Assembly: GCA_020848695.1 (NCBI GenBank)
Contig: JADLHT010000032.1
Coordinates: 1 to 32,550 of the forward strand
Origin: Saprospiraceae bacterium
GTDB taxonomy: Bacteria; Bacteroidota; Bacteroidia; Chitinophagales; Saprospiraceae
Length of the DNA: 32,550 nt
Direction: 5' to 3'
Shown here one piece after another: positions 1,652-32,550 of this stretch. The notes beneath the pieces are model-generated. The model had not been told where the DNA came from and made no database searches. It was given only the letters and a program-made list of their open reading frames with translations. Position 1 is the stretch's first letter. Each line of letters starts with the position of its first letter. Both the position numbers and the translations under genes were made by a program.

Positions 1652-1817
1652 TGTATATTCCTACGAAGCTGACCCCCCAAATGGCGTTTATGTTGACCCC
1701 CTAAATGGCGGCAAGCTGACCCCCTAAAAATTCAAATTTTAGTATCAGGTCAAAGCCAGATTAGAAGTGGATAATTTAAATTACGTTGTGTCCAATTTTT
1801 AAGAAAATAAATTGGAT

Positions 1818-3416: not shown

Positions 3417-3458
3417 CGGATCAGAAACAATAATTTTAATCACTAAATATTAGTAAAA

Positions 3459-4184: not shown

Positions 4185-4199
4185 CTTTGTTCCCCACTT

Positions 4200-17146: not shown

Positions 17147-17164
17147 TCATACTTAATAATTATT

Positions 17165-18538: not shown

Positions 18539-18951
18539 GGTATTTAATTTTTCTAATTTTCTCACTATTTATTATTAGTTGTGGGGACAATCCATGCTCT
18601 ATTTGTAATGGTAATGGAAAAGTTATTAGCGATAGAATGATATCACAAAACTGCGATAATTGTTCAGGCAAAGGTTATTTAATATGTGATTATACCTTTG
18701 AAAATACTGGATTTGCATCAGCAACCACGTATAAATGTAGTAATGGAAAATATATTCCATTAAGTGTAGCTGGCTTTAATACTGGCCAACTATCTGGGCA
18801 CACATGTTCAAAATGCAATGGGAATGGGAAATTAAAATGTACTAAATGTAGCGGCCATGGAAAAATTTCAAAGGTTGAGAAAACTGAAGAAAACTGTGCC
18901 TTATGTTCAGGAACTGGTAGAGTAAGTAAACTTCAATCACTCTTTAAATAA
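18535..18951 (+). CDS. CxxCxGxG zinc-finger lipoprotein (DnaJ-like)
   Basis: A 138-residue protein with a lipoprotein signal (LFIISC, C16), followed by five CxxCxGxG-type repeats (CSICNGNG, CDNCSGKG, CSKCNGNG, CTKCSGHG, CALCSGTG) of the kind that bind zinc in the DnaJ cysteine-rich domain. There is no J domain. It may bind zinc or unfolded protein at the envelope, but this is inference. It starts within the stop codon of the GH3-type gene and is 8 bp from the next gene. Confidence 0.85.
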   Translation: MRYLIFLIFSLFIISCGDNPCSICNGNGKVISDRMISQNCDNCSGKGYLICDYTFENTGFASATTYKCSNGKYIPLSVAGFNTGQLSGHTCSKCNGNGKLKCTKCSGHGKISKVEKTEENCALCSGTGRVSKLQSLFK

Positions 18952-18959
18952 ATTTTAGA

Positions 18960-19262
18960 ATGGAAAAGAAAATGTATTTCACTATTATCCCAACTTCATC
19001 AGTTGATGAAGTTTTAATAAATGGCATAACATCTAAGAATGGTGCTCTAAAAGTATTTTTATTTTCAAAGATTGCTGATGAAATTAAAGATGAGTTCTTA
19101 AATGAAAATGTTCCGTGGTCATTGGTAGGTATTGATCATGAGGGTATTCAAGGATCAATTTTAAATGATGATGATGCTATAGCAAAGAAAATTTATAGGT
19201 TTATAATTGAGCAAAATTATTTCCATCCACGCTTTTTGATGATATACCATGAAAGAAATTAA
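18960..19262 (+). CDS. Small protein, possibly ADP-ribosyltransferase-like (100 aa)
   Basis: The N-terminal pattern (MYFTIIPTSSVDEVLINGITSKNGALKVFLFSK) resembles the first strand-helix-strand of KptA/DarT-like ART folds, which often read YHxTxxxxxxxIxxxGI followed by a V(F/Y)L strand. The middle (VPWSLVGIDHEGI) would fit the following strands. There is no clear catalytic triad, so this remains a fold-level guess. The gene overlaps the following membrane-protein gene by 14 bp, which suggests translational coupling. Confidence 0.6.
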   Translation: MEKKMYFTIIPTSSVDEVLINGITSKNGALKVFLFSKIADEIKDEFLNENVPWSLVGIDHEGIQGSILNDDDAIAKKIYRFIIEQNYFHPRFLMIYHERN

Positions 19263-19824
19263 AACTGATCAGGTAATAGACCTTTTATATAAAGAATATG
19301 AAATTGCTGGCGATAGAATTGAAGATTATCAAAGAAGCCATTTTAGGTACTATAGCGGAATTCTTCTATTTTTAATTGCAATTTTTACTTATTTTCATGG
19401 TCAGGGATCAAAGAATATTAGCTTAGAATTCCTTCCTTATCCTTTACTTTTTATTTCAATTCTAATTTATTATCATTATCATAGGACTTTAGTAATTCAG
19501 GCTTTTAGAAGAATAATTGGTCAGGAAGTAAATAAAATTATGGACCAAAATATCCTTATTTTTCATTTAATAAGTGATAAATACATCATTTCACCAAAAA
19601 GAAATATAAGTATAGGGATATTTTCCCTTTTAAATGTATTATTTTTTGCGTTTATAATCTATTATTGTTCTAAGGATAGTCAAAGTAATCTTAATAGTTA
19701 TTTACAATATATCATCTTATTTTTTCAGATATCACTATACATATATTCGACATATTTTATTCAACAGAAAGTTGAAAGAGATATGGTTAAGATTTTTAAT
19801 ACCCAATTTTTACAAAAACCATAA
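19249..19824 (+). CDS. Membrane protein, four predicted segments (191 aa)
   Basis: A soluble helical N-terminus (residues 1-33, KTDQVIDLLYKEYEIAGDRIEDYQRSHFRYY) precedes two hydrophobic segments (about 34-50 and 60-76), a soluble middle, and two more (about 124-141 and 150-170). I do not recognise a family. The layout resembles membrane partners of small effector proteins, and the 14 bp overlap with the possible ART-like gene makes a functional pair plausible. It ends the plus-strand cluster and overlaps the end of the convergent Argonaute gene by 15 bp. Confidence 0.7.
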   Translation: MKEIKTDQVIDLLYKEYEIAGDRIEDYQRSHFRYYSGILLFLIAIFTYFHGQGSKNISLEFLPYPLLFISILIYYHYHRTLVIQAFRRIIGQEVNKIMDQNILIFHLISDKYIISPKRNISIGIFSLLNVLFFAFIIYYCSKDSQSNLNSYLQYIILFFQISLYIYSTYFIQQKVERDMVKIFNTQFLQKP

Positions 19825-21906
19825 ATTTTCTTTCCCAAAATCTGCCAATTTATCATACGTAAAATATGGGTAAATTTGGGCTACCATTTCGGGGTACTTG
19901 ATAGTTACTGGCAAACTTTGCTGATTGGTGCTTTTCCAATACATACGGCTGAATTGAAATACTTGGTCAATAAGTTGCTTAGCTACTGCAGGATCATCAA
20001 AGTAATTTGGTATGCTGCTGCTTAAATTTAGCTTTAACGGAAAATGGTATTCTTTGTCGGCTGGTTTTGAATTTTCATCATAACGAGTATTATTAAACAA
20101 TAGATACTCGTTATTTCCAATTTTGATGTATGTGCCGCTTTGGGGCATCAACTCTTTAGAAAGTGTATCAAAACCTATGATGCTTTTACTTTCTGTTTTA
20201 TTGACTGTAACTATAACCACTGGAATATTTAAGCCCAAAGTGTGCAGGGTTTGCATGATGGGTTCTAATTCTTTTTTACTGATGTCTTTGTAAAAATGAA
20301 TTATTAACCTGGTAGCTTTGTAGTTAACGGCAATAAACTTGGCAACTGCTTCTCTGATGGAACCAGCTAAACTTGTGGCATCTTGGGATCTAAAGCAGTC
20401 GAAACCTTTAAAAACGCCTTCGTTATTAAAACAAAAAGCAGAACCAACGAAACGAGTTTTGCGAGTGATGGAATAAAATGCACCAACACCAACAATAAGT
20501 TCGTTGGTAGAAGGTCTCTTTAATCGCCAAGGGATACCGCCCAGTTTAGCTAATAGGGCTATTTCGATGTGTGGAAGAAATGTATTGAAATAATCGTTTG
20601 GCTTACCGTTTTTGAACAAATGCTCTGCCTTGACTACCTGAGATAGTATGTTTTCGTAAAGTAATACTTCTTTGATTTTATAGTATATATTTACTTTGGT
20701 TTGGTCTTTTTCAAACTTAGAAACTGGATTTACAAAAAGTGCCATGTACTTTGTATCTGGCAGTCGCTTCATATTTTTTACAGCTGTTTTGATGGTATCA
20801 AAGGCTGTTTCGATGGTGTCAAACTCTATATTGGCTTCTATGTCTAATTGTAATGGTTGGCTTATATAAGATTCCATTGATGGAAAAGGCCAACGGTCAT
20901 GTTTGTAGCCATCTTTAAGAAAATCATAAAGGGCTTTTACTGCTGTAGTCTTTTGGTTTTTTTGATAAATAAAAAAGAACTTCACATTGTTGGGTGGTGG
21001 GGCTGGCATATATGCCTTGTATTTTTTGAAATCTTTGTGAGGGTCTCTTCCTGTGTATCTTATGCCTTTAGTGTCTTTGCCGTATTCTAAATCGAATGAT
21101 TCGTATTCTATGGTACCTACTTCGCCTTCTTGGTCTGTGGTATAAAGCTCTGCTTTAAACCCTAATTGCTGTATGAGTACTGAGTCATTCAAATATTTCT
21201 TAACGAAGCCATTTATATTTTGCAGATATTTAGGATAACGATTTGTGAAATCGGGACTATCGAATGCTATTTCAAAATGTGGTTTTAAATTATTGCTTAA
21301 CACTGGAAAGGCATTTGCTAAGTCATTTTTGATATCAGCTGGCATGTATTTATACCTATATAATCTATTTTTGTAGGCTATCCAATTGTAAAGCTGGGTA
21401 TCGAAATTATTAATCTCAGCTAAGCTCCTTTTTAAGATTTTTGTTGTACCATCAAATGAAACTACCATTTCGGGACCTTCTGAAATTCGGGCCTGTTGCA
21501 GCTTTAAAGTAAACTGGTAAAACAAAGTAAACTTGGAACTAGATTGATCTTTTGCTTCGTACCATACTACTATGTCTTTGGTGAAATTGCAGTGCATCAA
21601 TGAAGCATGTTTGCGAAAATACTCTCTAATGATGTGCCGGTAATAATGCAAAGCAAAATAGGGACTTTCGTCTAAATTTACCGTCATACTAAAAGCATCT
21701 TCTAAATCATCGCTAAAATTTGTGTATAACCAATTGCCATGTTCCAACTTTTCTTCTTCTATAATACCTTGCAATTGCCCTTCAAGATCATCTTTATGGA
21801 TTGGTGAAAAAGTTTCGTGGTCAGGCTTATGAGTAAGAAACTTAAATGTTAGTTCTTTGGCTGCTGGTGCAAAAGGGATAATATTTAGAAGTATGGACTG
21901 CTGCAT
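19810..21906 (-). CDS. Prokaryotic Argonaute with degenerate PIWI site (698 aa)
   Basis: The C-terminal half has the MID-PIWI pattern. A MID guide-5'-phosphate motif appears as YYKIKEVLLYENILSQVVK (Y409, K410, Q423, K426). The PIWI strands follow: GGIPWRL, ELIVGVGAF, GSAFCFNNEGVF, LAGSIREAV, RLIIHFYKD and LPVTIKYPEMVAQ. The catalytic DEDX tetrad seems lost: the first aspartate position reads G475, the RDG-type strand reads HFYK (537-540) and the final YAD-type motif reads YPE (671-673). About 400 residues precede MID, so it is longer than short pAgos. It likely binds a guide and recognises targets without cutting, and relies on a partner. It is last in the operon with the ISP enzyme and the AlbA_2 protein. 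Confidence 0.85.
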   Translation of the reverse strand: MQQSILLNIIPFAPAAKELTFKFLTHKPDHETFSPIHKDDLEGQLQGIIEEEKLEHGNWLYTNFSDDLEDAFSMTVNLDESPYFALHYYRHIIREYFRKHASLMHCNFTKDIVVWYEAKDQSSSKFTLFYQFTLKLQQARISEGPEMVVSFDGTTKILKRSLAEINNFDTQLYNWIAYKNRLYRYKYMPADIKNDLANAFPVLSNNLKPHFEIAFDSPDFTNRYPKYLQNINGFVKKYLNDSVLIQQLGFKAELYTTDQEGEVGTIEYESFDLEYGKDTKGIRYTGRDPHKDFKKYKAYMPAPPPNNVKFFFIYQKNQKTTAVKALYDFLKDGYKHDRWPFPSMESYISQPLQLDIEANIEFDTIETAFDTIKTAVKNMKRLPDTKYMALFVNPVSKFEKDQTKVNIYYKIKEVLLYENILSQVVKAEHLFKNGKPNDYFNTFLPHIEIALLAKLGGIPWRLKRPSTNELIVGVGAFYSITRKTRFVGSAFCFNNEGVFKGFDCFRSQDATSLAGSIREAVAKFIAVNYKATRLIIHFYKDISKKELEPIMQTLHTLGLNIPVVIVTVNKTESKSIIGFDTLSKELMPQSGTYIKIGNNEYLLFNNTRYDENSKPADKEYHFPLKLNLSSSIPNYFDDPAVAKQLIDQVFQFSRMYWKSTNQQSLPVTIKYPEMVAQIYPYFTYDKLADFGKENLWFL

Positions 21907-21909
21907 AGG

Positions 21910-22143
21910 CTAAAATATTTGAGAGAGTTTTTTGGATTTTATTAATCTATCAAAGGAAGTGTATGATATATGGGTATTTCTGTTTACAAAGTGTGTATGG
22001 AATACAAGGATTTGCATAGGAAGGATTATTTTTACATAAGTATCTCTTTGCAATATCTGCAAATTGCAAACAAACTGCAAAGAGATTTGCAAAGAGATTT
22101 GGTATAAAGTGTTGAGAATCAATATTATTTTGTTTGCAATCAT
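21910..22143 (-). CDS. Possible 77-aa small protein between AlbA_2 and Argonaute genes
   Basis: This frame starts in the stop of the upstream gene (ATGA overlap) and its TAG lies 3 nt before the Argonaute ATG, so it fills the 233 bp gap exactly. The product is hydrophobic and aromatic (IANKIILILNTLYQISLQISLQF...), with a repeat ISLQISLQ derived from a DNA repeat. Another frame over the same bases is also open (21950-22186), and the DNA repeats could have a regulatory role instead. The coupling geometry favours translation, but composition is not convincing. Confidence 0.35.
   Translation of the reverse strand: MIANKIILILNTLYQISLQISLQFVCNLQILQRDTYVKIILPMQILVFHTHFVNRNTHISYTSFDRLIKSKKLSQIF
22042..22098. 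repeat. ATCTCTTTGCA motif: one inverted and two tandem copies
   Basis: ATCTCTTTGCA (22042-22052) is the perfect reverse complement of TGCAAAGAGAT at 22076-22086, which is repeated in tandem at 22088-22098 (12 bp period). Further TTTGCAA words lie between them. The 11 bp arms could form a hairpin with a 23-base loop, or be protein-binding sites upstream of the Argonaute gene. Confidence 0.6.
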
Positions 22144-23897
22144 GTTGTTTTTCTTTTGTAAACTCTCTTGTTATGCCCTTTTTCATAGGCTATTTCGATT
22201 AGATTATCATCCATCATTTCATTAAAAAGGCGACTTATAAATGGGGCATTGGTATCTGGAATATTTAATAATTTTCTTGCCCCTTCATTTTCGATCTCGC
22301 CAACACTATCAAGATACCTAAGAATTGCTTCTATTTGACGGGCCTTCTCTTGCTTCTTTTGTTTTGAATAGGTAATCTTGTCTTCCGTTGATTCTAATCT
22401 ACTCTTATGAATGATGTATTTTAAATCTGATGTACGACCTGTTGTCTCAATGAGTTCTAAATCTAATAATTCTGTTAGTATTCTTTTGAGCTGGTATTTA
22501 TTGACAAAGATTGAGTTCTCCAGTTGAGATAAAGTCATTTTTTGACCCGAATAAATATAGTTAAGCACAATAAGTTTTTCGAAATCAATATCAATGCCTG
22601 TTAACTGTTTATAAAGTATAGACAACTCGGCCAGTTTTTCTATATGCACATCTGCTTCTACTCTTATTATTATACTATCTTCTGTTTGCTGGGGTATAGG
22701 TAAACTTTTACCTTTGGAAAGCAATGCGGTGAATATCTTGTCGAAGCCACTACCTGCTTTTTCTGCATAATTGATTTCCCGTAAGACATCCATGATGTTT
22801 GGGTTTCGTGGATTTGTTTTTCTTAAAAAATTTGTTTCGTCCACTCCTTGTGGAAAACGACCAGGGCTTTCAAACTCGATGTAAGAAGGGTATTTCCGTA
22901 TTTCTATAATTTGCTGACGACTATAGTCTCTGTGAGCTACGGCATTAATAAGAAGCTCTCTAAGTACAATTTCTGAATAATCTTCAATGTACTCTCTAAA
23001 AAGACCAAAATGGAACTCTTTTACTTTTTTTTCTGCTACTAACTGAGCGAAACATTGATCTACAATAGTGATTAAATCACCCTTATATTCAAATGGTGTG
23101 TATGTACCATCTTCATAATACCTGATGTATTTGATCTGGTTAAAAGGTAATTCTTTTAGAGCCTTGGCATTACCTATAAAAAGTAACCCTGTTGTAGTAG
23201 GCAGATAATGACCATCGACTTCTTTTATCAATCCTAAGGTCTCATTAAACTCTTGGGAACTGTTTTTCAAATAAGAACTTTTGGGATGATTGTTTTTTAT
23301 ATTGTTGTAAAGACTTCTGGCTTTATTGATGTCTTGCCACCCGGGTACAGGCATACCGTTTACATCAGATTCTGTAGAGACCAGATTGAACTGCCAAGTC
23401 TTTTGGTCAAATACAATTAAATCTTTTTCAGATTGAATGGTACTGATTTCATGAGGCTCAATTGCTCTATTTCCATCATTGGACCTTATCAAGTATTCTG
23501 ATTTACTCGTTCTATGAAGCTGTTTGGAAAAGGGAATTTCTAATAGAGCAAGGTCGGTTTCATTCACTCTTAGTTTGTGAATTTGCAATGTAATGCTAGG
23601 GCTTGTTCTATTTTGAATTTGGCTAACCAAATCAAATAAATTCTTATTGTCATAAGTGAAGTCAACATTTATCTCCTTGGATTCATCAGCAATACCAAGA
23701 AAAATAAATCCACCTTTCTTATTGGCAAAAGCAACTACATCTTTTGCTAATTCATCATACTTGGGAGCATAGCTTTTGTATGGTTTCCCAAAAATATTCT
23801 TATCAGATAAATATTCTTTAAAATCTAAAATATCACATTCTCCTTGTGCAATTAGATTGTAAAACCATTGGATACTATGTTTGGTGTATTTTTCCAT
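22140..23897 (-). CDS. AlbA_2 (Schlafen-type) domain and GHKL ATPase protein
   Basis: A 585-residue protein. An AlbA_2/Schlafen-like domain is at the N-terminus: ECDILDFKEYL (about 20-30), then DVVAFANKKGGFIFLGIAD (about 53-71) and the IRSNDGNRAIEPHEI segment. A RecG-related GHKL-type ATPase C-terminal region follows (ELLINAVAHRDYS, FESPGRFPQGV, NPNIMDVL, EKAGSGFDKI, about 315-395). Winged-helix segments end the protein. Family members are often annotated as ATP-binding or transcriptional regulators, and some occur in defence islands. The start codon shares one base with the stop of the ISP gene (TAATG), and its own stop overlaps the next start, so it is translationally coupled in the operon. 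Confidence 0.88.
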   Translation of the reverse strand: MEKYTKHSIQWFYNLIAQGECDILDFKEYLSDKNIFGKPYKSYAPKYDELAKDVVAFANKKGGFIFLGIADESKEINVDFTYDNKNLFDLVSQIQNRTSPSITLQIHKLRVNETDLALLEIPFSKQLHRTSKSEYLIRSNDGNRAIEPHEISTIQSEKDLIVFDQKTWQFNLVSTESDVNGMPVPGWQDINKARSLYNNIKNNHPKSSYLKNSSQEFNETLGLIKEVDGHYLPTTTGLLFIGNAKALKELPFNQIKYIRYYEDGTYTPFEYKGDLITIVDQCFAQLVAEKKVKEFHFGLFREYIEDYSEIVLRELLINAVAHRDYSRQQIIEIRKYPSYIEFESPGRFPQGVDETNFLRKTNPRNPNIMDVLREINYAEKAGSGFDKIFTALLSKGKSLPIPQQTEDSIIIRVEADVHIEKLAELSILYKQLTGIDIDFEKLIVLNYIYSGQKMTLSQLENSIFVNKYQLKRILTELLDLELIETTGRTSDLKYIIHKSRLESTEDKITYSKQKKQEKARQIEAILRYLDSVGEIENEGARKLLNIPDTNAPFISRLFNEMMDDNLIEIAYEKGHNKRVYKRKTT

Positions 23898-26800
23898 TAC
23901 TCAAATTTAATAACTGGTAATCCATCCACTATCTCTACCGTCTGCGTACTCACATGTATGATACTCAAAAGTAAGTCAAGGATATATCTTGGTTTGCCTT
24001 GCTCGGTGGACCAATCGTTGGGATTGTTGGTGATGCCTGAGTCTTTGTGGGTGGTGATTTGGTATCGCTCCATGATGCACTCTATGGCAGACTTGCCATT
24101 GACTTGATAGTCGTATGCTCGGTCTGGAATGCCTTCTATGGTGATCTGACTGTTGTAATAGATAATGGACTTGTCATCTACTTTTTTAGTCTTGCCGTCG
24201 ATGGTGACTTCTTTTTTGCCAAATCGCATTTTGTCCACTCGGTAATGTAGAAACTCCATCTCATCTTTATTGGCTTGTGATAAGGCTGATGAAACATTCA
24301 TAGGACTGATCATGGTGATGACATCAGGATGTGGCGGTACATCTTCATAATGCAGGTGTAACTCTGCTAACTCACGGCCTGCCTTGCTAAAATCCCAAAA
24401 CTGTTTGACATCTTCTACCAATGGTAGGCGTGGCAACATCTTCTTGAGATCATTGGCATAGGTCTCCCGGTAGGTGGGACTGTGCAGAAAGCCATAGACA
24501 TAATAAAAAATGTCTTCTTTGGTGACAGATTTGCCATATTGATCCACTGCCCTGCTGTGAATAAAGTCAGAGATAGCATCGTGGCGACGATATCTTAGGC
24601 TTAGATCTGTATTGAATAGATCCGCTTGGGTGGTGCTGATTTCTTCATAATAATATAGTGGAAAGCATTGTGTATCACCATTGAAATGTAGATTAGTAAT
24701 TTTATCAGAAATCAAAATGGAAATTGCATCGTTCGCACTAGGAGAGATACAAATTGTAATGTTGGATAAGTCATTTTGAGGATAAAAAATACTATTTACC
24801 CCAGGACTTTCAATAAAAGATTTCTCATTATATAAATTTTGCTTGGTGAAAGGTCTATAAAAACTAGATGAAATATAACTTGAATTAAAATTTGCAATTT
24901 TATTATTTGAAGCATCCTTTCTCAATGCCCGTGTCCAACTAATTTTAGTATTATTATTATCAATAAAATTTTCTATTTCAAGAGGTGGGGAATTGCTTTT
25001 TGCAATTGCAAATTTTAAAGTTTGATCATTATAAAAATCAATCATTGAAGACATTTTTAACTCAACAGTCTTTTTTGAAAAATTATAAACCCAGGCATCC
25101 CTATTTGTATTGAGGCCTATTCCATAAGTATTAAAGAAAGACTTAGTAGACGTATCAAACTTTTTCTCCGGTTCGATGGGAATATAATTATCAAAACCTT
25201 CATTGCGCATGCTGATCCAATCGCCTTCGGCATTGGGTGTAAGTTGACGAAGTGGTATATCGGGATTGGCAAAGGATTTAAATGTATCTATGATGTTGAG
25301 TTTTGTTTCGCGATCAAGATAGTCACCGATATCGTGGTAGTAGATGGTTGCTTTACTTACCTTGACATCAGGATTTTTTACCAATAATGTAATTGCTATC
25401 GGGGTACGTGAGCCGCTACCAAAAAGTTTACCGCCTTCTTTGCGACTGAGTTCGCCACTTGTACGCTGATTGCCCCGAAGATTGAATACATAGATGGAAG
25501 TAAATTCCCTTTCTAGAGATTTTCTAAATCCATCTGTGCTGTTGCCATCAAGCCATGCTCCATTGCTGATAAAACAAATGATGCCACCATCTTTGCCTAA
25601 TCGATCTGTACTCCATCTGAAGGCTTTGATGTAGGCATCGTATAAAGATTTGCTAAGACCCGCAGAAGATAGATGAGCATACGTCCTTGAAATATCGTTG
25701 TCTAATTTTTTGTATGATTGATTTTGAGCATTGTCATTGGCATTCTTTTGACCTATGGAATAAGGTGGATTGCCTATGATGATACGGAGTGGAGCTTTCT
25801 TTTGTCTCACTACCCGGTCAGAGTTTTGTGGAAACATTTCAGAAAAAAGTCTTTCGCCATCTTCGGTTTCACCAAGCTGAAAAGTGTCGGTAAGTACGAT
25901 ACCATCAAATGGGGTATATTTTTCTTTACCGATACCATCATCAGGATCAAGTGTCTGATCGTGGTAAGCATTCTCGATATTGACGGCTGCGATATAGTAA
26001 GCTAATAATACGATTTCGTTGGCATGAATCTCATGTAGGTATTTTCGCTCCAGGTCTTTTTCTTCAATTAAGCCACTTTGTATTAGTCGTGTGATGAATG
26101 TGCCTGTGCCTGTAAATGGGTCAAGGATGTGGATATTTTCATCACCTATGTTACGACCAAATTCTTTTTTCAAAACATCTGCCACACTTTGTATGATAAA
26201 ATCCACTGCTTCGACAGGAGTATATACGATACCGAGTTTTTCGACTAGTTTAGGGAAAGCAGTTTTAAAGAATTTGTCATACAGCTCTATGATGATATTT
26301 TGCTTACCTATGGCATTATCGATGCCTGATGCTCTCATTTTTACAGACTCATAAAATGACTGAAGGATTTCAGTATCTTTTTCTACTTCATCACCTTCGA
26401 GCAGATCGAGCATGTGTTGCATAGCTTGACTCATAGCATTGTTTTTCACAAAGCTGTACCCTTCGAATAAGGCATCAAAGACAGGCTTGGTAATAATATG
26501 CTGGCTAAGCATATCGATGGCTTCTTCTTTTGAGATAGAAGGGTTGATGTTTTTATGCAAACCTTTCATAAAATCTTCAAAAGCCTGATTGTGCTGTGGG
26601 TTGGTCTCGATGAGTTTGGTAATGCGCTCTATTTGTCTTTGGGCTATCTCAGCAACTGATTGTGCCCATTGCTCCCAATATCTGCGGTCACCTACTTTCT
26701 GCACCATACGAGCAAAGACCACATCTTGTAAATTATGGAACTGCATAGCCAATTGAGTAGCTACGTCGGATTTGCTTCCTTTTTGCTTTTGTACAGGATT

Positions 26801-28855
26801 GCCTTGATCGTCAAAGGTGGTTGGTGTGCCCCCGACCACGATTTGATTTGGACGTTTATTGTTGAGTTCAATCTTATTGATGGTAGCATTGAAGCGGTCA
26901 TCATGTGCTCTCAAAGCGTTGAGAACGGACCAAACGACTTTGTATCTTTCGTTGTCATCCAATGCCTGATCTGCTGCCATATCTGATGGTACTAAGATAG
27001 GTATGATGATATAGCCAAAGTTTTTGCCTTCGGATTTTCTCATGACTCTGCCTACACTCTGCACCACATCAACTTGTGAGTTGCGAGCTGACAAAAACAA
27101 AACGGCATCAAGCGATGGCACATCTACGCCTTCACTCAGGCAACGTACATTGGTCAAGACCCGACATTCGTTGGGTTTTGTTTCTTCTTTGAGCCATCGC
27201 ATCAGGGTGTCTCTATCTGTGGCATTCATGGTCCCGTCTATGTGTCGAGACTCTACCAACTGCATGTGCATCTGCTGATCGGATGGCAGCTGTTTGACAT
27301 AGGTATCAGAAGCCGCATTGAATGAATTGGTAATTTTTCTAGATGTGACTATACTCTGGCAGAATGCTACAGCTCGTCGCATAGGATCAGGATCTGTAGC
27401 TTTGATGATGCCTTCATCCCCTAATATTTGCTTGGATAAAGCATTGATGCAACCAATAAGTTTGGAAGCGTCGTCTGTATTGATTTCATTGTCCTGATCA
27501 GTAAGGATCTTTTGTACTGCAGGAGGTACGTCTTTTTCATTTAGGGTAAGGATAAGGACTTTATAATCTGTCAATAAATCCTTTTCAACAGCTTCACCAA
27601 AACCTATACGATACATCTCTTGACCATACATGGATTCGTCGTCCATGCTACACAAGATAGCTTCTGCTTTTGCGGCTTTGCTCTTGCTCTCAGCGTCATA
27701 GAGCCGCGGGGTAGCAGTCATATACACTCTTTTCTTAGCTTTGATAAAGTCGTTGTTATGCACTTTGGTAAATGCTCCTTCATCACTAGAAGACAACGCT
27801 ACACCTGTGGTACGGTGAGCTTCATCACAGATGATCAAATCAAACTGGGCAAATTGTGGATATTTATCACCGCAAACCTTTTGGGCTTTGGCTATAACTT
27901 CAATTGATTGATATGTGGAGAATACCACTTTTAGGCCTGATGGCTTGGTCTGGTCTAATATCTGAAACTGATGCATAATGGCATCCACATTGGTAGATGC
28001 AGGAAGTGCAAGGTCGATGACAGATGATGTATCAATGTCGTCTACTTGATCTCTTTTTTTTGTGATTTCTGGATCAGAGCAGATACATATCGCAGATATC
28101 GGCTCGATAGCATCAGCGTACCACTCATTGAGTGTTTGACCCAATAATGAAATAGAAGGAACTAAAAACAGGATAAAACCATTACCTTCGGTAAGTCTCT
28201 CAGCAAGGCGAAGCGAAGTGAAGGTCTTGCCCGTACCACAAGCCATGATGAGTTTGCCGCGATCTGCATTCATAAAATGGGTGTACGTATTCTCCACTGC
28301 TTGCGTCTGATGTGCACGCAATGTTTTTTTTGCTAAACGTGCATCAGTACCCGTAATGTCTTGTTCGAGTTTTTGCCAATCGATGGGTGCATCGTAAAGA
28401 TCATTTAGGTTAACACGAGATAGCGCAGGGCTTTGATTTTTGATTGCTTCCTGAGCATTAGCACTCCATTTATTGGTGGTGCTAATCCAGAGTCTATGAG
28501 AAAATTTTACTCTGTGACCGGTATTAATATCCTTAAAATCACGACCTGATGTAGTGATAAAACTATCTACAGCTGGTTTATCAATGCTGCTATCTTCTTG
28601 AAAACATTTGCACTGTATCGCCCAATATTCACCCGACGTAGTTAATGTAACTAAGTCGATGCCCGTATCATTGCCGCCAAAATCTTCTCTAGCTGGAAAC
28701 TCATTCCAAAGCCATACTTTTGAGAAAAGATTGGCATATCGAGGGTCTGTAAGAAGATAAGCCTTCATAAGGCGTTCAAATCTGGCACCCTTGTCTCTTT
28801 CAGAAAACGATATTGATCGATATTTGGAAAGTATGGTGTCGAAATAGTTATTCAT
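23897..28855 (-). CDS. Type ISP restriction-modification enzyme (1,652 aa)
   Basis: A single-chain restriction-modification enzyme like LlaBIII/LlaGI. An Mrr-like nuclease is at the N-terminus (D67 in GIDLV, QCK at 81-83). An SF2 translocase follows (Walker A ACGTGKT at 205-211, DEAH at 344-347). Then comes an N6-adenine methyltransferase (motif I DPFTGTGTF at 912-920, motif IV NPPY at 1029-1032) and a C-terminal target-recognition part. All motifs needed for cutting, translocation and methylation are present, so it looks functional. It lies 18 bp after a small XRE-type regulator and is coupled to the AlbA_2 gene. The C-terminal third (about 1300-1480) is lower in GC than the rest, as expected for exchangeable recognition domains. 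Confidence 0.95.
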   Translation of the reverse strand: MNNYFDTILSKYRSISFSERDKGARFERLMKAYLLTDPRYANLFSKVWLWNEFPAREDFGGNDTGIDLVTLTTSGEYWAIQCKCFQEDSSIDKPAVDSFITTSGRDFKDINTGHRVKFSHRLWISTTNKWSANAQEAIKNQSPALSRVNLNDLYDAPIDWQKLEQDITGTDARLAKKTLRAHQTQAVENTYTHFMNADRGKLIMACGTGKTFTSLRLAERLTEGNGFILFLVPSISLLGQTLNEWYADAIEPISAICICSDPEITKKRDQVDDIDTSSVIDLALPASTNVDAIMHQFQILDQTKPSGLKVVFSTYQSIEVIAKAQKVCGDKYPQFAQFDLIICDEAHRTTGVALSSSDEGAFTKVHNNDFIKAKKRVYMTATPRLYDAESKSKAAKAEAILCSMDDESMYGQEMYRIGFGEAVEKDLLTDYKVLILTLNEKDVPPAVQKILTDQDNEINTDDASKLIGCINALSKQILGDEGIIKATDPDPMRRAVAFCQSIVTSRKITNSFNAASDTYVKQLPSDQQMHMQLVESRHIDGTMNATDRDTLMRWLKEETKPNECRVLTNVRCLSEGVDVPSLDAVLFLSARNSQVDVVQSVGRVMRKSEGKNFGYIIIPILVPSDMAADQALDDNERYKVVWSVLNALRAHDDRFNATINKIELNNKRPNQIVVGGTPTTFDDQGNPVQKQKGSKSDVATQLAMQFHNLQDVVFARMVQKVGDRRYWEQWAQSVAEIAQRQIERITKLIETNPQHNQAFEDFMKGLHKNINPSISKEEAIDMLSQHIITKPVFDALFEGYSFVKNNAMSQAMQHMLDLLEGDEVEKDTEILQSFYESVKMRASGIDNAIGKQNIIIELYDKFFKTAFPKLVEKLGIVYTPVEAVDFIIQSVADVLKKEFGRNIGDENIHILDPFTGTGTFITRLIQSGLIEEKDLERKYLHEIHANEIVLLAYYIAAVNIENAYHDQTLDPDDGIGKEKYTPFDGIVLTDTFQLGETEDGERLFSEMFPQNSDRVVRQKKAPLRIIIGNPPYSIGQKNANDNAQNQSYKKLDNDISRTYAHLSSAGLSKSLYDAYIKAFRWSTDRLGKDGGIICFISNGAWLDGNSTDGFRKSLEREFTSIYVFNLRGNQRTSGELSRKEGGKLFGSGSRTPIAITLLVKNPDVKVSKATIYYHDIGDYLDRETKLNIIDTFKSFANPDIPLRQLTPNAEGDWISMRNEGFDNYIPIEPEKKFDTSTKSFFNTYGIGLNTNRDAWVYNFSKKTVELKMSSMIDFYNDQTLKFAIAKSNSPPLEIENFIDNNNTKISWTRALRKDASNNKIANFNSSYISSSFYRPFTKQNLYNEKSFIESPGVNSIFYPQNDLSNITICISPSANDAISILISDKITNLHFNGDTQCFPLYYYEEISTTQADLFNTDLSLRYRRHDAISDFIHSRAVDQYGKSVTKEDIFYYVYGFLHSPTYRETYANDLKKMLPRLPLVEDVKQFWDFSKAGRELAELHLHYEDVPPHPDVITMISPMNVSSALSQANKDEMEFLHYRVDKMRFGKKEVTIDGKTKKVDDKSIIYYNSQITIEGIPDRAYDYQVNGKSAIECIMERYQITTHKDSGITNNPNDWSTEQGKPRYILDLLLSIIHVSTQTVEIVDGLPVIKFE

Positions 28856-28873
28856 TATTGATTTTAAATCGGA

Positions 28874-29173
28874 TTAGAAAAATGATAGGAGATCTTTTTT
28901 GGTCAAATCAAGTGCTTGAATAGCTTCTTTTTTGTCATCAAAAACAGTAAGAAATGATGCTATCTGGTCAGATGCCCAAAATAGCTGCAAGTCAGCTTTA
29001 GGCACATTTAAAATCTCACTGAAAAGCGGTAAATGTTCCATTCGGGCTATTCGTTCGCCACGCTCTAACTTTGAGAGATAAGCCACATCCATGTCGAGCT
29101 TAGCAGCAAGCTGACGAAGTAAAAGGTTGTTTTCTTCACGTTTTAGTCTGATAAAAGTGCCTAATTTGTTCAT
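28874..29173 (-). CDS. XRE-family regulator, probable restriction-modification controller
   Basis: A 99-residue protein with an N-terminal helix-turn-helix of the XRE/Cro type (GTFIRLKREENNLLLRQLAAKLDMDVAYLSKLERGER, about residues 5-41). It precedes the type ISP gene by 18 bp in the same direction. A palindrome overlapping its own promoter suggests autoregulation, as in controller (C) proteins that delay restriction until the host is methylated. It might also control the downstream AlbA_2 and Argonaute genes. Confidence 0.9.
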   Translation of the reverse strand: MNKLGTFIRLKREENNLLLRQLAAKLDMDVAYLSKLERGERIARMEHLPLFSEILNVPKADLQLFWASDQIASFLTVFDDKKEAIQALDLTKKDLLSFF

Positions 29174-29187
29174 TTGTATAAAAATGA

Positions 29188-29206
29188 TTTGTCATAAAGT
29201 GACAAA
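29188..29206. promoter_or_regulatory. Palindromic operator TTTGTCATAAAGTGACAAA
   Basis: TTTGTCA and TGACAAA form a perfect 7 bp inverted repeat with a 5 bp spacer, 15 bp before the regulator's ATG. It overlaps the -7 box, so binding would block transcription of the operon. The regulator at 28874-29173 is the obvious ligand. Confidence 0.7.
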
Positions 29207-29210
29207 AGTA
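29203..29210 (-). promoter_or_regulatory. -7 promoter box TACTTTTG for the defence operon
   Basis: TACTTTTG on the minus strand fits TAnnTTTG, 29 nt upstream of ATG 29173, and shares 4 bases with the palindromic operator. It would drive the regulator, the ISP enzyme, the AlbA_2 protein and the Argonaute. Confidence 0.6.
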
Positions 29211-29277: not shown

Positions 29278-30360
29278 TTGGAAAAGAAAAAAGGATTTTA
29301 TGAAGTAGGCTTTAAAGGAGAAACGGTTGCAAAAGTGCCTATTGGTGGGACTAATTCAGAAATTGATCCTGATCATAAATATATAGTTGCAACAAACTCT
29401 TATTATGGAGAAAATAAAGATCATGTGATTTTCCATATATTAGATGAATATTGTGGTAATATTAAGAATAATAGAAAGAAATGGAAAACAGATATAAAGC
29501 CTTATTTCTGTACGTTCACAGGGAAAGATAATAAATGGAAAAGTCATGCTATAAATTTTCATATTCTAAAAAGGTATATTCATAAGCACAATCATTTTTA
29601 TTTCAAAGATTTTGATTTTCCTAATTATAATTGTGATTGGTTAGATTACAGTATAGATATGACTCTTAATTTTATGCATAAAGATGGAATTGGTGTACAA
29701 GACTTTTCAAGAAAACAATTTTTTGGAATTAATATATTTCCACAACTAGAAAGAGAGGGGCATATAATATCAACCTTCTTACCACAGCTTACGATGAGAG
29801 TGGTAAGAAAAAGAAATTATCTAATAGAAAATTCAAACTTAGTATTGACGATTGATTGGTTGCTTGATTTTAAAGATTTGATAAATGATTCTATTTCTCT
29901 CATTGATATATTCTTAATGCAATTTTATACCAAATCACAATTTGCACCTTTAAAATCATGGAATTTTGATGAAACTATTGTTGGGTCTAAATTCAATAGG
30001 AGGATAGATGACAAATTGAAATGGATAAGGCTAATAACTGGAAAAAACTTAAACATTGAAAACGAAAAGAAAGATTTTACAATTATTAGAGAACTTAGAA
30101 ACCATTTAAATCACTTTGATCCACCATCATTTTGTGCATCTCTTGAAGAGATAGCTGAATGGATGAATATGATATTATCAGTATCTACTATATTATTTAA
30201 AATGCGAAAATGTACTGAGTCAGTTTTATCTGAGGAATTAATGACCTTAATGGTCCAACCGATAGTCAAATTTGATCCACAAAAAGTTTTTAGCGATAGA
30301 TACCCACAACCTAAAGCAATGTCTGGGTACACTACGTCGATATGGAAAAATCCTATTTAA
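29278..30360 (+). CDS. Hypothetical protein with HEPN-like motif (360 aa)
   Basis: I do not recognise the full-length protein. The C-terminal third is helical and contains RELRNHLNHFDPP, where R274-N275-x3-H279 matches the RNxxxH motif of HEPN ribonucleases and related Apea-like proteins. The N-terminal part is rich in aromatic residues and probably globular. No ATG precedes codon 127 in this frame, so TTG 29278 is the likely start; a nearby ATG at 29268 is out of frame and opens only 11 codons. It is divergent from the defence operon and convergent, with a 3 bp gap, with the VirE-N/DUF3987 gene. A role as an RNA-cleaving effector is possible but unproven. Confidence 0.65.
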   Translation: MEKKKGFYEVGFKGETVAKVPIGGTNSEIDPDHKYIVATNSYYGENKDHVIFHILDEYCGNIKNNRKKWKTDIKPYFCTFTGKDNKWKSHAINFHILKRYIHKHNHFYFKDFDFPNYNCDWLDYSIDMTLNFMHKDGIGVQDFSRKQFFGINIFPQLEREGHIISTFLPQLTMRVVRKRNYLIENSNLVLTIDWLLDFKDLINDSISLIDIFLMQFYTKSQFAPLKSWNFDETIVGSKFNRRIDDKLKWIRLITGKNLNIENEKKDFTIIRELRNHLNHFDPPSFCASLEEIAEWMNMILSVSTILFKMRKCTESVLSEELMTLMVQPIVKFDPQKVFSDRYPQPKAMSGYTTSIWKNPI

Positions 30361-30363
30361 AAA

Positions 30364-32550
30364 TTAGAGTTTTTTATAATGACCTGCTTTTATCTTTTCC
30401 AATTTAATACCTAATGCGTTTTTTAGTAATGAATCTATCGTCCTATCAGCCAAACCAAGTGGCTTACCAATCTCGATGGCTTGTTGTCGCGTAAACTCTT
30501 GGGGCAATTGCTCGAAAAAGTCAGATTTTGCCTTGCTTGAATTGGTAAAAGGTTGCTGGTTATTTTGATTTGGGAGATTATTGTACATGAGTAAGCTATG
30601 AGCTAGAAAAGTTTCGCACAAAATAAGTGATGTGTTAAAATCAAGGTCTTGACATTTGAGTTGCGTTTTTAGCTCTGCGGTGTCACATTTTCTTAATGCA
30701 GATAGAATCATTGCTATACGAAAACAAACTAAACCTAAACGAAACACAACCGCAGATGCATCATCCCCATTAAAAACTGCTACATCCTGGAGGTATTGAG
30801 AAAAAGTAGCATTAAGTTTTGCCCATTGATCGTGGGTCAATGAAAACTCAGTAGGATCAATAGAAAGAAAATCAATACCATTCAGGACCATTGTGGATAG
30901 ATTGTCAAAATGGTCGTTTAAAACTATATTTGATGCTGAGACGGAAGGGTCAAGCCAAACCACTTCATTCTTGAATGCATAAAAAAGAAAGCGAGAGAAT
31001 AGACCATCTTCCGCTGATGCTATTAGTCGTGGCACCTGTGCTGGTGTCCCTGATAGACAAACTGCCAGCTTTGGTTCTTTGATCTCAATGTATTCATTAT
31101 TTGTTTTTCTTGAGAAAGCATACTTTTCATGGTGGAATGCTGCTCGAAGCACCGGAGAATAATCACCCCAATCTTGTTTTTTAGCCCCACTCATGGCATC
31201 TGCTTCGGTTTCACAAATGATGCCTTCGCCACCATTGTTTTGTAAGTGTTCAATCATTCGTGATGCAGAACTATCAGCAGGAATAAAAACTATGCGGAAT
31301 TTAGGTTCTTGTGGTTTCTCTGGTTGTGGATCATTTTTGTGCTTTGTTCTACATTCAGACTTAAATGACTCAAAATCAATATTAAACTCAGCTTGTGCAT
31401 CACGACTGGCTTTTAAAACTCTTTCGTGGTATTTGTCGGCTAATCGTTTAGCATTTTTAAGAACACCTTTACCACTGGCAGCTGGTGCAATCACAAATGT
31501 ATATAGATGTGGATACACTCTCTCGCCATGATAAATACCTGACACTCCTGGCAAACAACCACTTAAAATAGATAATGCACTGATGAGAAATACATCTTTA
31601 CGACGTGAATCATTAAAAGCGGAACAACCTGCTCGAAGTACGTCAGGAAGTGAATCAAAAATGTGATCAGGAATTGCTGGGGTGGACTTTAAGTAATCTT
31701 CATCATCAATTGGCTTCTCTATAGACTCCTTCTTGTTAATATCAGACTTTGAATAATTTGCATACTTTGCATGTTCAGCAAAGTGATTTGTGTAGGCACT
31801 TTTTACAGATGCTCTAATTTCAGAATGTTTTAGATCAAACTTCTGGATACATAAATCTTCACAATCTAGCTGGGAAATGCCTGATCTATTGCAATTGGAA
31901 GCCAATTGATAAATGTAGTTATTTCGATTTCCTTCGGAATAAGAAACCTTGTTATTCGTAAATTCAATCATCTGATTGAATTTGAAGTCAAGACTAAGAT
32001 TTGCAGGTGGTGGTAATTCCTTTGCCGGCTGGATAGGTAGTAAGGGATTTGGATATTGAATTGGCTTGTCCGAAAAAGGAAGATCAACTATGAATCTTTT
32101 ATTCTCTATGGTCCTAAGTGAATTAGGATCAAAACTAACGAAACAAAGTCTGGTAATGTCTTTGCACTTTGCATCCGCAACAATACAAAGCGCCTTCTCA
32201 TAATATTCTTTAACTTGCTGATAAGCTATATCATGGTGTTCCATGGATGTATTCACTTCTACGAAAACTTTGAGACCATTGCCGCTTGGACTTATAAAAC
32301 ATAGATGGGTGTATGATATTTCCCCAATCTTTTGTTTTAACGATGGAATGTCATTTTCATCTAATTTATCAAAGTCAAGGTGTACGAATCCACTGTACAT
32401 ATCGAGATTGTCTAATGTTCGCCTATTGATGAAAGTACCGGAAGGAGTGAAAGCGGGAAGAGACTTCTTCAACCGCTCTGCTTCTTCCTTATTAGACGAT
32501 AAGGCATTTCTGTACTGTTCTACTTGGGTCTTATACTTGCCATTAATAAT
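30364..32550 (-). CDS. VirE N-terminal / DUF3987 protein, 5' end outside window
   Basis: The frame stays open to the window edge, so the start lies beyond 32550; the TTG at 32472 is not the true start. The N-terminal part matches the VirE-N/BT4734-like domain of Bacteroidota mobile elements (LKKSLPAFTPSGTF, GFVHLDFDKL, ISPSGNGLKVFVEV). A DUF3987 region follows (LPDVLRAGCSAFNDSRRKDVFLISALSILSGCLPGV, then a phosphate-loop-like IAPAASGKG), which looks like a degraded helicase or primase-type ATPase. Such proteins are common on phage- and plasmid-derived islands and are thought to act in DNA replication of the element. It suggests that the defence operon sits next to mobile-element genes. Confidence 0.88.
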   Translation of the reverse strand: MINGKYKTQVEQYRNALSSNKEEAERLKKSLPAFTPSGTFINRRTLDNLDMYSGFVHLDFDKLDENDIPSLKQKIGEISYTHLCFISPSGNGLKVFVEVNTSMEHHDIAYQQVKEYYEKALCIVADAKCKDITRLCFVSFDPNSLRTIENKRFIVDLPFSDKPIQYPNPLLPIQPAKELPPPANLSLDFKFNQMIEFTNNKVSYSEGNRNNYIYQLASNCNRSGISQLDCEDLCIQKFDLKHSEIRASVKSAYTNHFAEHAKYANYSKSDINKKESIEKPIDDEDYLKSTPAIPDHIFDSLPDVLRAGCSAFNDSRRKDVFLISALSILSGCLPGVSGIYHGERVYPHLYTFVIAPAASGKGVLKNAKRLADKYHERVLKASRDAQAEFNIDFESFKSECRTKHKNDPQPEKPQEPKFRIVFIPADSSASRMIEHLQNNGGEGIICETEADAMSGAKKQDWGDYSPVLRAAFHHEKYAFSRKTNNEYIEIKEPKLAVCLSGTPAQVPRLIASAEDGLFSRFLFYAFKNEVVWLDPSVSASNIVLNDHFDNLSTMVLNGIDFLSIDPTEFSLTHDQWAKLNATFSQYLQDVAVFNGDDASAVVFRLGLVCFRIAMILSALRKCDTAELKTQLKCQDLDFNTSLILCETFLAHSLLMYNNLPNQNNQQPFTNSSKAKSDFFEQLPQEFTRQQAIEIGKPLGLADRTIDSLLKNALGIKLEKIKAGHYKKL

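What the first reader, a model, noticed from the sequence alone, without database searches (positions are those of the whole stretch)
19810..29210. Operon joining a type ISP restriction enzyme, an AlbA_2 ATPase and an Argonaute
Five frames on the minus strand are tightly coupled: the regulator is 18 bp from the ISP gene, ISP and AlbA_2 share one base (TAATG), AlbA_2 and a small frame overlap (ATGA), and that frame ends 3 nt before the Argonaute. One operator-promoter precedes them all. Each part is a known defence family, but I do not know this combination as a named system. One model is that the nuclease-dead Argonaute detects invading nucleic acid and signals through the AlbA_2/ATPase protein, while the ISP enzyme gives first-line restriction.
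Basis: partly seen in the sequence, partly recalled or inferred. Interest (0 to 1): 0.82.

Follow-up and report, generated by a model that had tools for sequence, protein, structure and literature searches.

The report
Swappable defence slot beside dead Argonaute
In a mobile DNA element of Bacteroidota, a nuclease-dead Argonaute gene stays put while the restriction enzymes and other defence genes in front of it are swapped like cartridges; the restriction enzyme, ATPase and Argonaute seen here look like one such load, not a conserved three-part machine.

Summary
The genes and spacings are real: an HTH regulator, a 1652-aa type ISP restriction enzyme, an AlbA_2/HATPase protein and a dead long pAgo, behind one operator-like site. 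The fifth "small gene" is probably not a gene: its last 17 codons match the end of another gene at this spot in the nearest relative elements, a probable scar.

Comparison with 85 related Argonaute loci changes the interpretation. The Argonaute closes a slot in an integrative element: integrase, DUF6617, primase (BT4734/DUF3987), operator+HTH, variable defence genes, Argonaute. The load is type I, type III, ISP or Dcm-type R-M, RhuM, Abi_2, OLD-like genes, or nothing. In 9 of 16 compared sister pairs the elements differ up to within 90 nt of the Argonaute start. R-M type is random on the Argonaute tree (17 changes; shuffled mean 17.4); the primase tracks the Argonaute (r 0.56, 0 of 999). The Argonaute is under purifying selection, keeps a guide-pocket motif and lacks the first catalytic Asp. 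ISP+AlbA_2+Argonaute occurs in 1 of 86 loci, and the AlbA_2 neighbours are scattered arrivals.

AlbA_2 signalling is therefore unlikely. The subclade was flagged (og_54) in 2023, function open.

The parts
30364..32472 (-). BT4734-like (VirE-N) + DUF3987 primase/helicase of the mobile element; left anchor of the slot. Its frame stays open to the contig end, so its start may lie beyond the window
   Evidence: Pfam PF08800 and PF13148; open frame of 728 aa; in relatives its distances track the Argonaute's (n 33, r 0.56, 0 of 999 permutations)
29278..30360 (+). 360-aa divergent ORF between primase and HTH, no Pfam family
   Evidence: no opposite-strand ORF of that size is listed between primase and HTH in the relatives
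29189..29210 (-). promoter -7-like box TACTTTTG (29203-29210) overlapping the operator-like dyad TTGTCA-N5-TGACAA (29189-29205)
   Evidence: dyad upstream of 19 of 28 regulators of this HTH cluster exactly and 27 of 28 with at most one substitution, against 35 and 178 of 20000 random 110-nt stretches
28874..29173 (-). HTH_3 regulator, first gene of the run
   Evidence: Pfam PF01381 E 2e-11
23897..28855 (-). type ISP restriction-modification enzyme (nuclease-helicase-coupler-methylase-specificity), slot load
   Evidence: 65% identical ISP beside a distant pAgo in a same-genus genome (L036)
22140..23897 (-). SLFN_AlbA_2 + HATPase_c_4 protein, slot load, more likely the R-M enzyme's companion than the Argonaute's
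   Evidence: two of three relatives examined lie in R-M operons with no Argonaute seen
22031..22093 (-). hairpin of TTTGC repeats in the AlbA_2-Argonaute gap
   Evidence: MFE -24.8 kcal/mol for 91 nt, z -5.7, 0 of 200 shuffles; 9 of 13 intergenic hits of a triple-TTTGC pattern lie 56-168 nt before the regulator gene in relatives
   Evidence: 13 of 17 residues identical to the C-terminus of the 327-aa gene before the Argonaute in L038/L039
19810..21906 (-). catalytically dead long pAgo, right anchor of the slot
   Evidence: Pfam Piwi, PDLC02385; Gly473 at catalytic position 1 and Y408/K412/Q423/K454 invariant in 55 of 55; AF2 pLDDT 86

Best explanation
This is one loading of a cassette slot in a Bacteroidota integrative element (integrase, DUF6617, HTH_17, BT4734/DUF3987 primase). 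The slot begins at an operator-like site with an HTH regulator gene and ends at, or one companion gene before, the start of a conserved dead pAgo. Shown by comparison: the anatomy, the exchange of what lies between, and the constancy and purifying selection of the Argonaute. Inferred: the HTH represses its own promoter through the dyad that overlaps the -7-like box, so R-M or other defence genes recombined into the slot come under element-controlled expression and newly transferred restriction genes are held back until the cell is methylated. Inferred: the Argonaute, the constant layer, loads small 5'-phosphate guides in its conserved MID pocket and binds DNA of competing plasmids or elements without cutting, as RsAgo does, while the exchangeable R-M module gives sequence-specific restriction. 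In the window the load is ISP + AlbA_2; a 17-codon probable scar suggests that it replaced an earlier load.
For: Layout in relatives. Of 86 Argonaute loci the primase is in view in 45; of these, R-M of type I 18, type III 12, ISP 1, Dcm-type 1, no R-M 13; a regulator (HTH or c32 model) in 30. Of 16 sister pairs compared, 9 differ up to within 90 nt of the Argonaute start, among them L105/L108 (flanks 95% over 6.5 kb and 93% over 9 kb; RhuM gene against nothing, and a diverged HTH), L080/L081 (7.2 kb of type I R-M against nothing, HTH conserved), L073/L107 and L089/L091 (type III R-M present or absent). R-M type on the Argonaute tree equals random (53 rows, 17 changes, shuffled mean 17.4, range 12-22). 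Argonaute-primase distances correlate (r 0.56, 0 of 999), Argonaute-HsdR and -HsdM do not. Argonaute dN/dS 0.02-0.14 in 15 of 15 pairs. Dyad 19 of 28 exact, 27 of 28 with at most one substitution. Class-level samples: of 21 genomes with such a primase, 10 have the Argonaute; in 9 an HTH regulator lies between them on one contig, and the tenth (G521) is split over two contigs; the 10 primase loci examined in 9 of the 11 other genomes show no match to the HTH or Argonaute models. Probable scar.
Against: No expression or functional data. The 80 named loci are the best 80 of 333 relatives, picked by Argonaute similarity. Only 45 of 86 loci show the primase; in the others the flank or contig ends first, or there is none. 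In 3 of 16 pairs (L042/L044, L042/L046, L043/L048) a companion gene (DUF1016 or RhuM) stays with the Argonaute and the exchange ends before it; 4 more pairs share the load, change it only in part, or are both empty. The HTH gene does not track the Argonaute or primase (r 0.12 and 0.00) and lies inside the exchanged stretch in some pairs, so the left edge is soft. The dyad was defined on the same sequences that it was counted in, and the five c32-type regulators (L045, L063, L064, L073, L107) lack it. Type III genes track the Argonaute weakly (Mod r 0.28, 45 of 999; Res r 0.41, 11 of 999), and primase-HsdR distances lean the same way (n 7, r 0.50, 49 of 999). The integrase part of the window's own element was not found: the primase runs to the contig end, the DUF6617 query had no match in the own genome and the integrase query only weak ones. 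Guide loading and target are assumed from relatives.
Confidence: 0.62

Rival explanations
1. One reading: the dead Argonaute senses invaders and signals through the AlbA_2/HATPase protein as its effector, with ISP as first-line restriction, one integrated three-part system.
For: Genes are adjacent and co-directional. An AlbA_2-HATPase-pAgo fusion of 1134 aa exists (PDLC02394, G207, L127), and AlbA_2 fused to several long-B pAgos is reported (PMC6299218 section 12). Long-B pAgos do use partner effectors (PMC10620215, passages).
Against: ISP+AlbA_2+Ago in 1 of 86 loci; AlbA_2-like genes upstream in 7 of 86, scattered on the tree; 19-26% identity for the five aligned; the nearest Argonaute relatives (69%, L038/L039) have none; two of three AlbA_2 relatives examined sit in R-M operons with no Argonaute seen; 233-nt gap to the Argonaute.
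Confidence: 0.08
2. The Argonaute is a core gene of the element itself (for example copy control, incompatibility with related elements, or protection of its replication), and the slot is merely the place where defence cargo recombines in; the two have no joint function.
For: Argonaute tracks the primase, not the type I load; it stays when no ORF of 80 aa or more but the HTH lies between (L068, L081, L108, L109, L114), when none does (L098), or only an opposite ORF (L103).
Against: Primases of the same broad family without a neighbouring Argonaute exist (10 loci examined), so it is not needed for the element's replication as such; it is led by the same regulator and operator-like site as the defence load.
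Confidence: 0.25
3. The Argonaute is an adaptor that activates or recruits whichever nuclease sits in the slot (HsdR, Res, ISP, RhuM, DUF1016, DUF5655), so the load is an interchangeable effector.
For: R-M loads in 32 of 45; the gene before the Argonaute ends within 20 nt of it in 47 of 77 loci; in 3 of 16 pairs a DUF1016 or RhuM gene stays with the Argonaute while the rest is exchanged; a long-B pAgo activates a separate nuclease (PMC10620215, passages). R-M genes also abut distant pAgos: ISP (L036), type I M-S (L037), Mod-Res (L178), type I (L174).
Against: Empty slots; loads unrelated to each other in sequence; no co-variation with type I genes.
Confidence: 0.12

Closest known systems
Long-B pAgos linked to og_54 (VirE-N) in Song et al. 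2023 (PMC10620215, passages) and long-B operons of Ryazansky et al. 2018 (PMC6299218, section 12 and passages)
   Same: Dead long pAgo; VirE-N protein 2-8 genes upstream; HTH (og_2), AlbA_2 (og_37), HsdS (og_11), type III enzymes and RND pumps listed near pAgos.
   Different: They list genes one by one; the 2018 paper finds no consensus operon and the 2023 paper leaves the og_54 group's function open. The fixed frame, exchanged slot, operator and scar were not in what I read. That og_54 is this primase rests on name and place, not on sequence.
BPAN / BPAS / BPAM long-B pAgo systems (PMC10620215, passages)
   Same: Dead long-B Argonaute of the EcAgo kind.
   Different: There one effector gene follows the Argonaute and co-evolves with it; here the downstream gene is convergent and the upstream genes are exchanged.
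Type ISP R-M enzymes (LlaGI/LlaBIII type, recalled)
   Same: ISP domains in one chain.
   Different: Nothing unusual found in the enzyme itself; its place is unusual.
Defence hotspots of integrative elements (for example Pseudomonas genomic islands, PMC12629846, search listing only)
   Same: Defence genes exchanged at a fixed place in a mobile element.
   Different: Here the slot has its own regulator and operator-like site and is closed by an Argonaute.

Membership tests
long-B pAgo | catalytic tetrad lost | tested here: met
   Gly473 at the first Asp position in 55 of 55; EcAgo and AfAgo also have Gly there in the alignments; that active Agos have Asp there is recalled
long-B pAgo | full length with N, PAZ-like, MID and PIWI parts | tested here: inconclusive
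   AF2 model aligns over its length to RsAgo (Foldseek TM 0.67, rmsd about 7.8); PAZ not delimited
long-B pAgo | MID guide-end pocket (Y-K-Q-K, recalled) | tested here: met
   Y408, K412, Q423, K454 invariant in 55 of 55
long-B pAgo | place in the pAgo tree with RsAgo/EcAgo | tested here: inconclusive
   AfAgo, EcAgo, RsAgo are the nearest solved sequences; no tree across all pAgos was built
BPAN/BPAS/BPAM | cognate effector gene downstream of the pAgo on the same strand | tested here: not met
   the downstream gene 19249-19824 is on the opposite strand
type ISP R-M | single chain with Mrr-like nuclease, SF2 helicase, coupler, methylase, specificity domain | tested here: met
   Pfam matches along one 1652-aa frame
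AlbA_2/HATPase_c_4 proteins | both domains in one chain | tested here: met
   PF04326 E 1e-18 and PF13749 E 1e-12
integrative element with BT4734/DUF3987 primase | integrase near the attachment gene | tested here: inconclusive
   integrase close to mnmE in 7 of 80 named loci and in G194; the window's contig ends with the primase and no convincing copy was found elsewhere in its genome
three-part ISP-AlbA_2-Ago system | recurrence of the trio | tested here: not met
   1 of 86 loci

The most novel reading that the evidence does not exclude
A mobile element keeps a guide-binding dead Argonaute as the permanent platform of a plug-in immune slot: any restriction system recombined in front of it is put under the element's operator and works with the Argonaute, for instance by feeding it fragments of cut DNA as a source of guides, giving innate restriction a guided memory of the same invader.
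Probability: 0.1. Interest if true: 0.9.

Novelty: new variant of a known kind. Interest (0 to 1): 0.62.

Why it matters
It offers an explanation for why a survey found no consensus operon for these Argonautes and an unexplained link to VirE-N proteins and RND pumps: they would be parts and cargo of one element family with an exchangeable defence slot. It gives a natural experiment (closely related Argonautes with type I, type III, ISP or no restriction system) that can separate what a dead Argonaute does alone from what it does with a nuclease.

Tried and rejected
Rejected: (1) the small frame as a gene. (2) AlbA_2 as conserved Argonaute partner; against this rejection stand the fusion and the Caballeronia plasmid, where no R-M gene is listed beside the relative (PLSDB's table is incomplete). 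Only 2 of the 16 plasmid records were looked at. (3) A phage or plasmid home for this Argonaute: no phage record matches at E 1e-5 and only 8 plasmid records, at 23-26% over 36-48% of the query; one scan of viral contigs with the single sequence, which reaches close relatives only, gave none. (4) A known RNA family in the window: none at gathering score. (5) The HTH as part of the fixed frame by descent: its distances do not follow the Argonaute or primase; only its place and, for one of two clusters, the dyad are fixed.

Led nowhere: one structure library was not available; the paper search for cassette slots in Bacteroidota returned nothing to the point.

Dropped before counts: L053 (Argonaute split over two frames) and L087 (cut by the contig end) from the 86-row tree. 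L039 and L110 (Argonautes identical to L038 and L091) were left out of the distance tests, and L110 out of the 28 regulators, but both are still in the 86, 45 and 77 counts. In one search the distant rows L032-L034, L036 and L037 were also left out. ORFs under 80 aa were not looked at in relatives. R-M labels come from models built on clusters of these loci, with Pfam or PADLOC on representatives only. A locus counts as type I if any HsdM/S/R model matches, else as type III if any Mod/Res model matches; complete systems were not required, L031 counts as type III although it also has a Dcm-type gene, and some singletons may be missed R-M genes. BREX-, Gabija- and SIR2-HerA-like loads were recognised by eye only. 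In one search the DNA match of the scar scored 48, under the maximum of 500 shuffles (53).
Full report
Observation. The reading frames, overlaps and families in the finding are correct: HTH_3 regulator 28874-29173, type ISP enzyme 23897-28855, AlbA_2/HATPase_c_4 protein 22140-23897, pAgo 19810-21906, all on the minus strand. ISP and AlbA_2 share one base, and the HTH stop lies 18 nt before ISP. One dyad, TTGTCA-N5-TGACAA, at 29189-29205 overlaps a TACTTTTG box and is the only exact match of TTGNCA-N5-TGNCAA in the window (0.06 expected). The pattern was chosen after seeing it, and that the box fits the Bacteroidota -7 consensus is recalled, not tested.

The small frame. Its 77 residues match no Pfam or PADLOC family. 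Against all fetched loci only residues 61-77 match (tblastn E 0.002), namely the last 17 residues of a 327-aa gene in L038 and L039 that ends 10 nt before the Argonaute start; here the stop lies 3 nt before it. At the DNA level the match (score 48) is below the maximum of 500 shuffles (53), so the case rests on the 13 of 17 residues, the shared stop and the place. L038 and L039 carry the nearest Argonaute (69%; the two are identical to each other). I read the stretch as the probable remains of an earlier load. The rest of the 233-nt gap holds a strong hairpin of TTTGC repeats (z -5.7). In relatives, 9 of 13 intergenic triple-TTTGC hits lie 56-168 nt before the regulator gene.

Who else has it. 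PDLC02385 matched 22 of 395 genomes in a phylum sample (E at most 1e-20), 14 of 395 in a class sample (1e-60) and 3 of 9 in the genus (1e-10). A scan of named genome contigs gave 333 relatives, of which the best 80 were kept with up to 10-kb flanks. I clustered their neighbours and labelled them with models made from the clusters, with Pfam and PADLOC on representatives.

The layout. Where enough sequence is held, the order is integrase, DUF6617, HTH_17, BT4734/DUF3987 primase, HTH_3, variable genes, Argonaute, often then cargo such as RND and P-type ATPase genes (RND cluster in 23 of 80 named loci). In 7 of 80 named loci and in G194 the integrase lies close to mnmE. The primase is in view upstream in 45 of them. 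Between primase and Argonaute these 45 hold type I R-M 18, type III 12, ISP 1, Dcm-type 1, no R-M 13; a regulator (HTH or c32 model) is present in 30. Of the 13, L068, L081, L108, L109 and L114 have the HTH alone, L098 no ORF of 80 aa or more, L103 only an opposite one; the rest carry Abi_2 (L091, L110), RhuM (L105) or other genes (L056, L073, L076).

The load is exchanged. Sixteen sister pairs were compared by blastn. In 9 the pair agrees from within 90 nt of the Argonaute start onward and differs before it: L105/L108, L080/L081, L073/L107, L089/L091, L099/L103, L063/L064, L075/L079, L096/L111, L047/L049. L105 and L108 agree at 95% over 6.5 kb and 93% over 9 kb and differ by a RhuM gene between HTH and Argonaute. 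L081 has the HTH stop 1 nt before the Argonaute, and L080 has 7.2 kb of type I R-M in between. L107 and L089 have type III genes that L073 and L091 lack. In 3 pairs (L042/L044, L042/L046, L043/L048) a DUF1016 or RhuM gene stays with the Argonaute and the difference begins before it. The other 4 share the load (L080/L113), change it in part (L057/L074, L083/L085) or are both empty (L068/L109). On the Argonaute tree the split of type I and III needs 17 changes; shuffled labels need 12-22, mean 17.4 (53 rows). Distances of Argonaute and primase correlate (n 33, r 0.56, 0 of 999). Argonaute against HsdR (n 21, r -0.02) and HsdM (n 22, r -0.13) do not; against Mod (n 16, r 0.28, 45 of 999) and Res (n 18, r 0.41, 11 of 999) weakly; primase against HsdR r 0.50 with n only 7 (49 of 999). 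The HTH does not follow the Argonaute (r 0.12) or primase (r 0.00) overall, although it is closer among near Argonautes (median distance 0.30 against 0.54). In L105/L108, L047/L049 and L068/L109 identity falls across the HTH gene and returns at the Argonaute; in L080/L081 the HTH is conserved. So the left edge of the exchanged stretch is soft and lies in or around the HTH gene.

Common control. The dyad TTGNCA-N5-TGNCAA precedes 19 of 28 regulators of the window's HTH cluster exactly and 27 of 28 with at most one substitution, against 35 and 178 of 20000 random 110-nt stretches of the same loci; all 19 exact sites overlap TANNTTTG. The pattern was drawn from these sequences, so the contrast is flattering. 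The five regulators of the second cluster (c32) lack it. The gene before the Argonaute ends within 20 nt of it in 47 of 77 loci, median 15 nt. The window, at 233 nt, is among the loose ones.

Reverse control. In a class-level sample, 21 of 385 genomes have a primase at E 1e-60 or better. Ten of the 21 have the Argonaute; in G521 primase and Argonaute lie on two contigs, each broken at an HsdR frame. In the other 11, I examined 10 primase loci in 9 genomes (one cut short by its contig): none shows a match to the HTH or Argonaute models. G494 and G535 were not examined because their contigs are short. The HTH model was built from Argonaute-linked loci, so it leans towards them.

The Argonaute. 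Purifying selection is strong (dN/dS 0.02-0.14 in 15 of 15 pairs), so it is used. The first catalytic position is Gly in 55 of 55, and Y408, K412, Q423 and K454 are invariant in 55 of 55. They align with Y, K, Q and K of EcAgo; that these form the guide 5'-end pocket is recalled. AfAgo, EcAgo and RsAgo are the nearest solved sequences. The AF2 model (mean pLDDT 86, pTM 0.83) matches RsAgo and eukaryotic PIWI proteins about equally (TM about 0.67).

AlbA_2. Seven of 86 loci, the window included, have an AlbA_2-like gene upstream, scattered on the tree (7 changes; shuffled 5-7). Five of the other six were aligned: 19-26% identical to the window's, and L092 by eye lacks the AlbA_2 part. The only other match at E 1e-40 in 375 genomes (28%, G471) lies between an HsdM-type and a c65-type gene in a run that begins with HsdR, with no Argonaute in the 18 kb fetched. 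An Aeromonas plasmid has HTH, the ATP-binding protein, HsdM, HsdS, HsdR in order and no annotated Argonaute in 19 kb. A Caballeronia plasmid relative has no R-M gene listed beside it. Against my reading, a fused AlbA_2-HATPase-pAgo protein exists (1134 aa, G207), and such fusions are in print (PMC6299218, section 12). The two families can work together elsewhere, but nothing here shows it for the window.

What is in print. Ryazansky 2018 (section 12 read, passages elsewhere) lists HTH, AlbA_2, HsdS, type III enzymes and RND pumps (14% of long-B operons, role unknown) around pAgos and states that no consensus operon could be built. Song 2023 (passages) names an og_54 VirE-N subclade, with og_54 usually 2-8 genes upstream, whose function needs future study. 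I equate og_54 with the BT4734-like primase by description and place, not by sequence. Kazlauskas 2018 (PMC5862659, passages; author name recalled) predicts DUF3987 to be a helicase of mobile elements. Searches for the slot, the primase link or R-M-Argonaute operons listed no paper whose title or abstract start showed it; one search listed only 20 of 352. Subscription journals and preprints are not held.

Mechanism, with what is shown and what is inferred. Shown by comparison: a fixed frame with an exchanged load, an operator-like site in one regulator cluster, a conserved dead Argonaute with its pocket motif intact, and probable remains of an earlier load in the window. Inferred: autorepression by the HTH, a single transcript, guide loading, and silencing or loss of competing plasmids or elements as in RsAgo. 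Whether Argonaute and load help each other is open; the empty slots show only that the Argonaute can persist without one.

Also seen: R-M genes directly before distant pAgos without this primase in view, with SIR2 behind them in L036 and L037 and a 404-aa gene behind in L178; in L174 the pAgo reads as two frames inside a type I run that also holds an AlbA_2-like gene. That is 4 of 19 distant loci (L032-L034, L036, L037 and the 14, several on short contigs), so the neighbourhood of R-M and long pAgos may be wider than the element.

Noticed in passing
22020-22110 (-): Strong hairpin of TTTGC repeats in the AlbA_2-Argonaute gap; in relatives similar triple TTTGC repeats lie mostly before the regulator's promoter. 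It could be a terminator, a recombination mark or an RNA.
   Followed up: partly
L036 3512-11732 (G401, same genus as the window): A type ISP enzyme 65% identical to the window's overlaps a distant pAgo (24% identical), which is followed by a SIR2 protein: an ISP-pAgo-SIR2 run.
   Followed up: partly
L127 / G207 C6:46097-49456: AlbA_2-HATPase fused to a pAgo in one 1134-aa chain (PDLC02394 over its full length).
   Followed up: partly
854-9260: An IS21-type pair (IstA/IstB, 1812-4184) lies between a 1686-aa sacsin-domain/SF1-helicase frame (4200-9260) and a frame with a helicase C-terminal match (854-1243), as if it had interrupted one large gene.
   Followed up: no
16484-19824 (+): Run of closely spaced genes with a GH3-like enzyme, a DnaJ-type zinc protein and, convergent with the Argonaute and overlapping its 3' end by 15 nt, a hydrophobic 191-aa protein that by eye looks membrane-bound.
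   Followed up: no
L112 521-8276; L056 3919-8552; L092 5430-9990: Slot loads that look by eye like BREX, Gabija-like and SIR2-HerA-like genes, so the slot may take more than R-M.
   Followed up: no
L068, L091, L109 downstream of the Argonaute: RND efflux genes, with P-type ATPase genes in L068 and L109, follow the Argonaute as cargo; this fits the RND link that the 2018 survey could not explain.
   Followed up: partly
L068/L109 and L105/L108, HTH gene: The HTH regulator diverges much faster than its neighbours (dN 0.23-0.31 against 0.01-0.05), even between two empty slots.
   Followed up: partly
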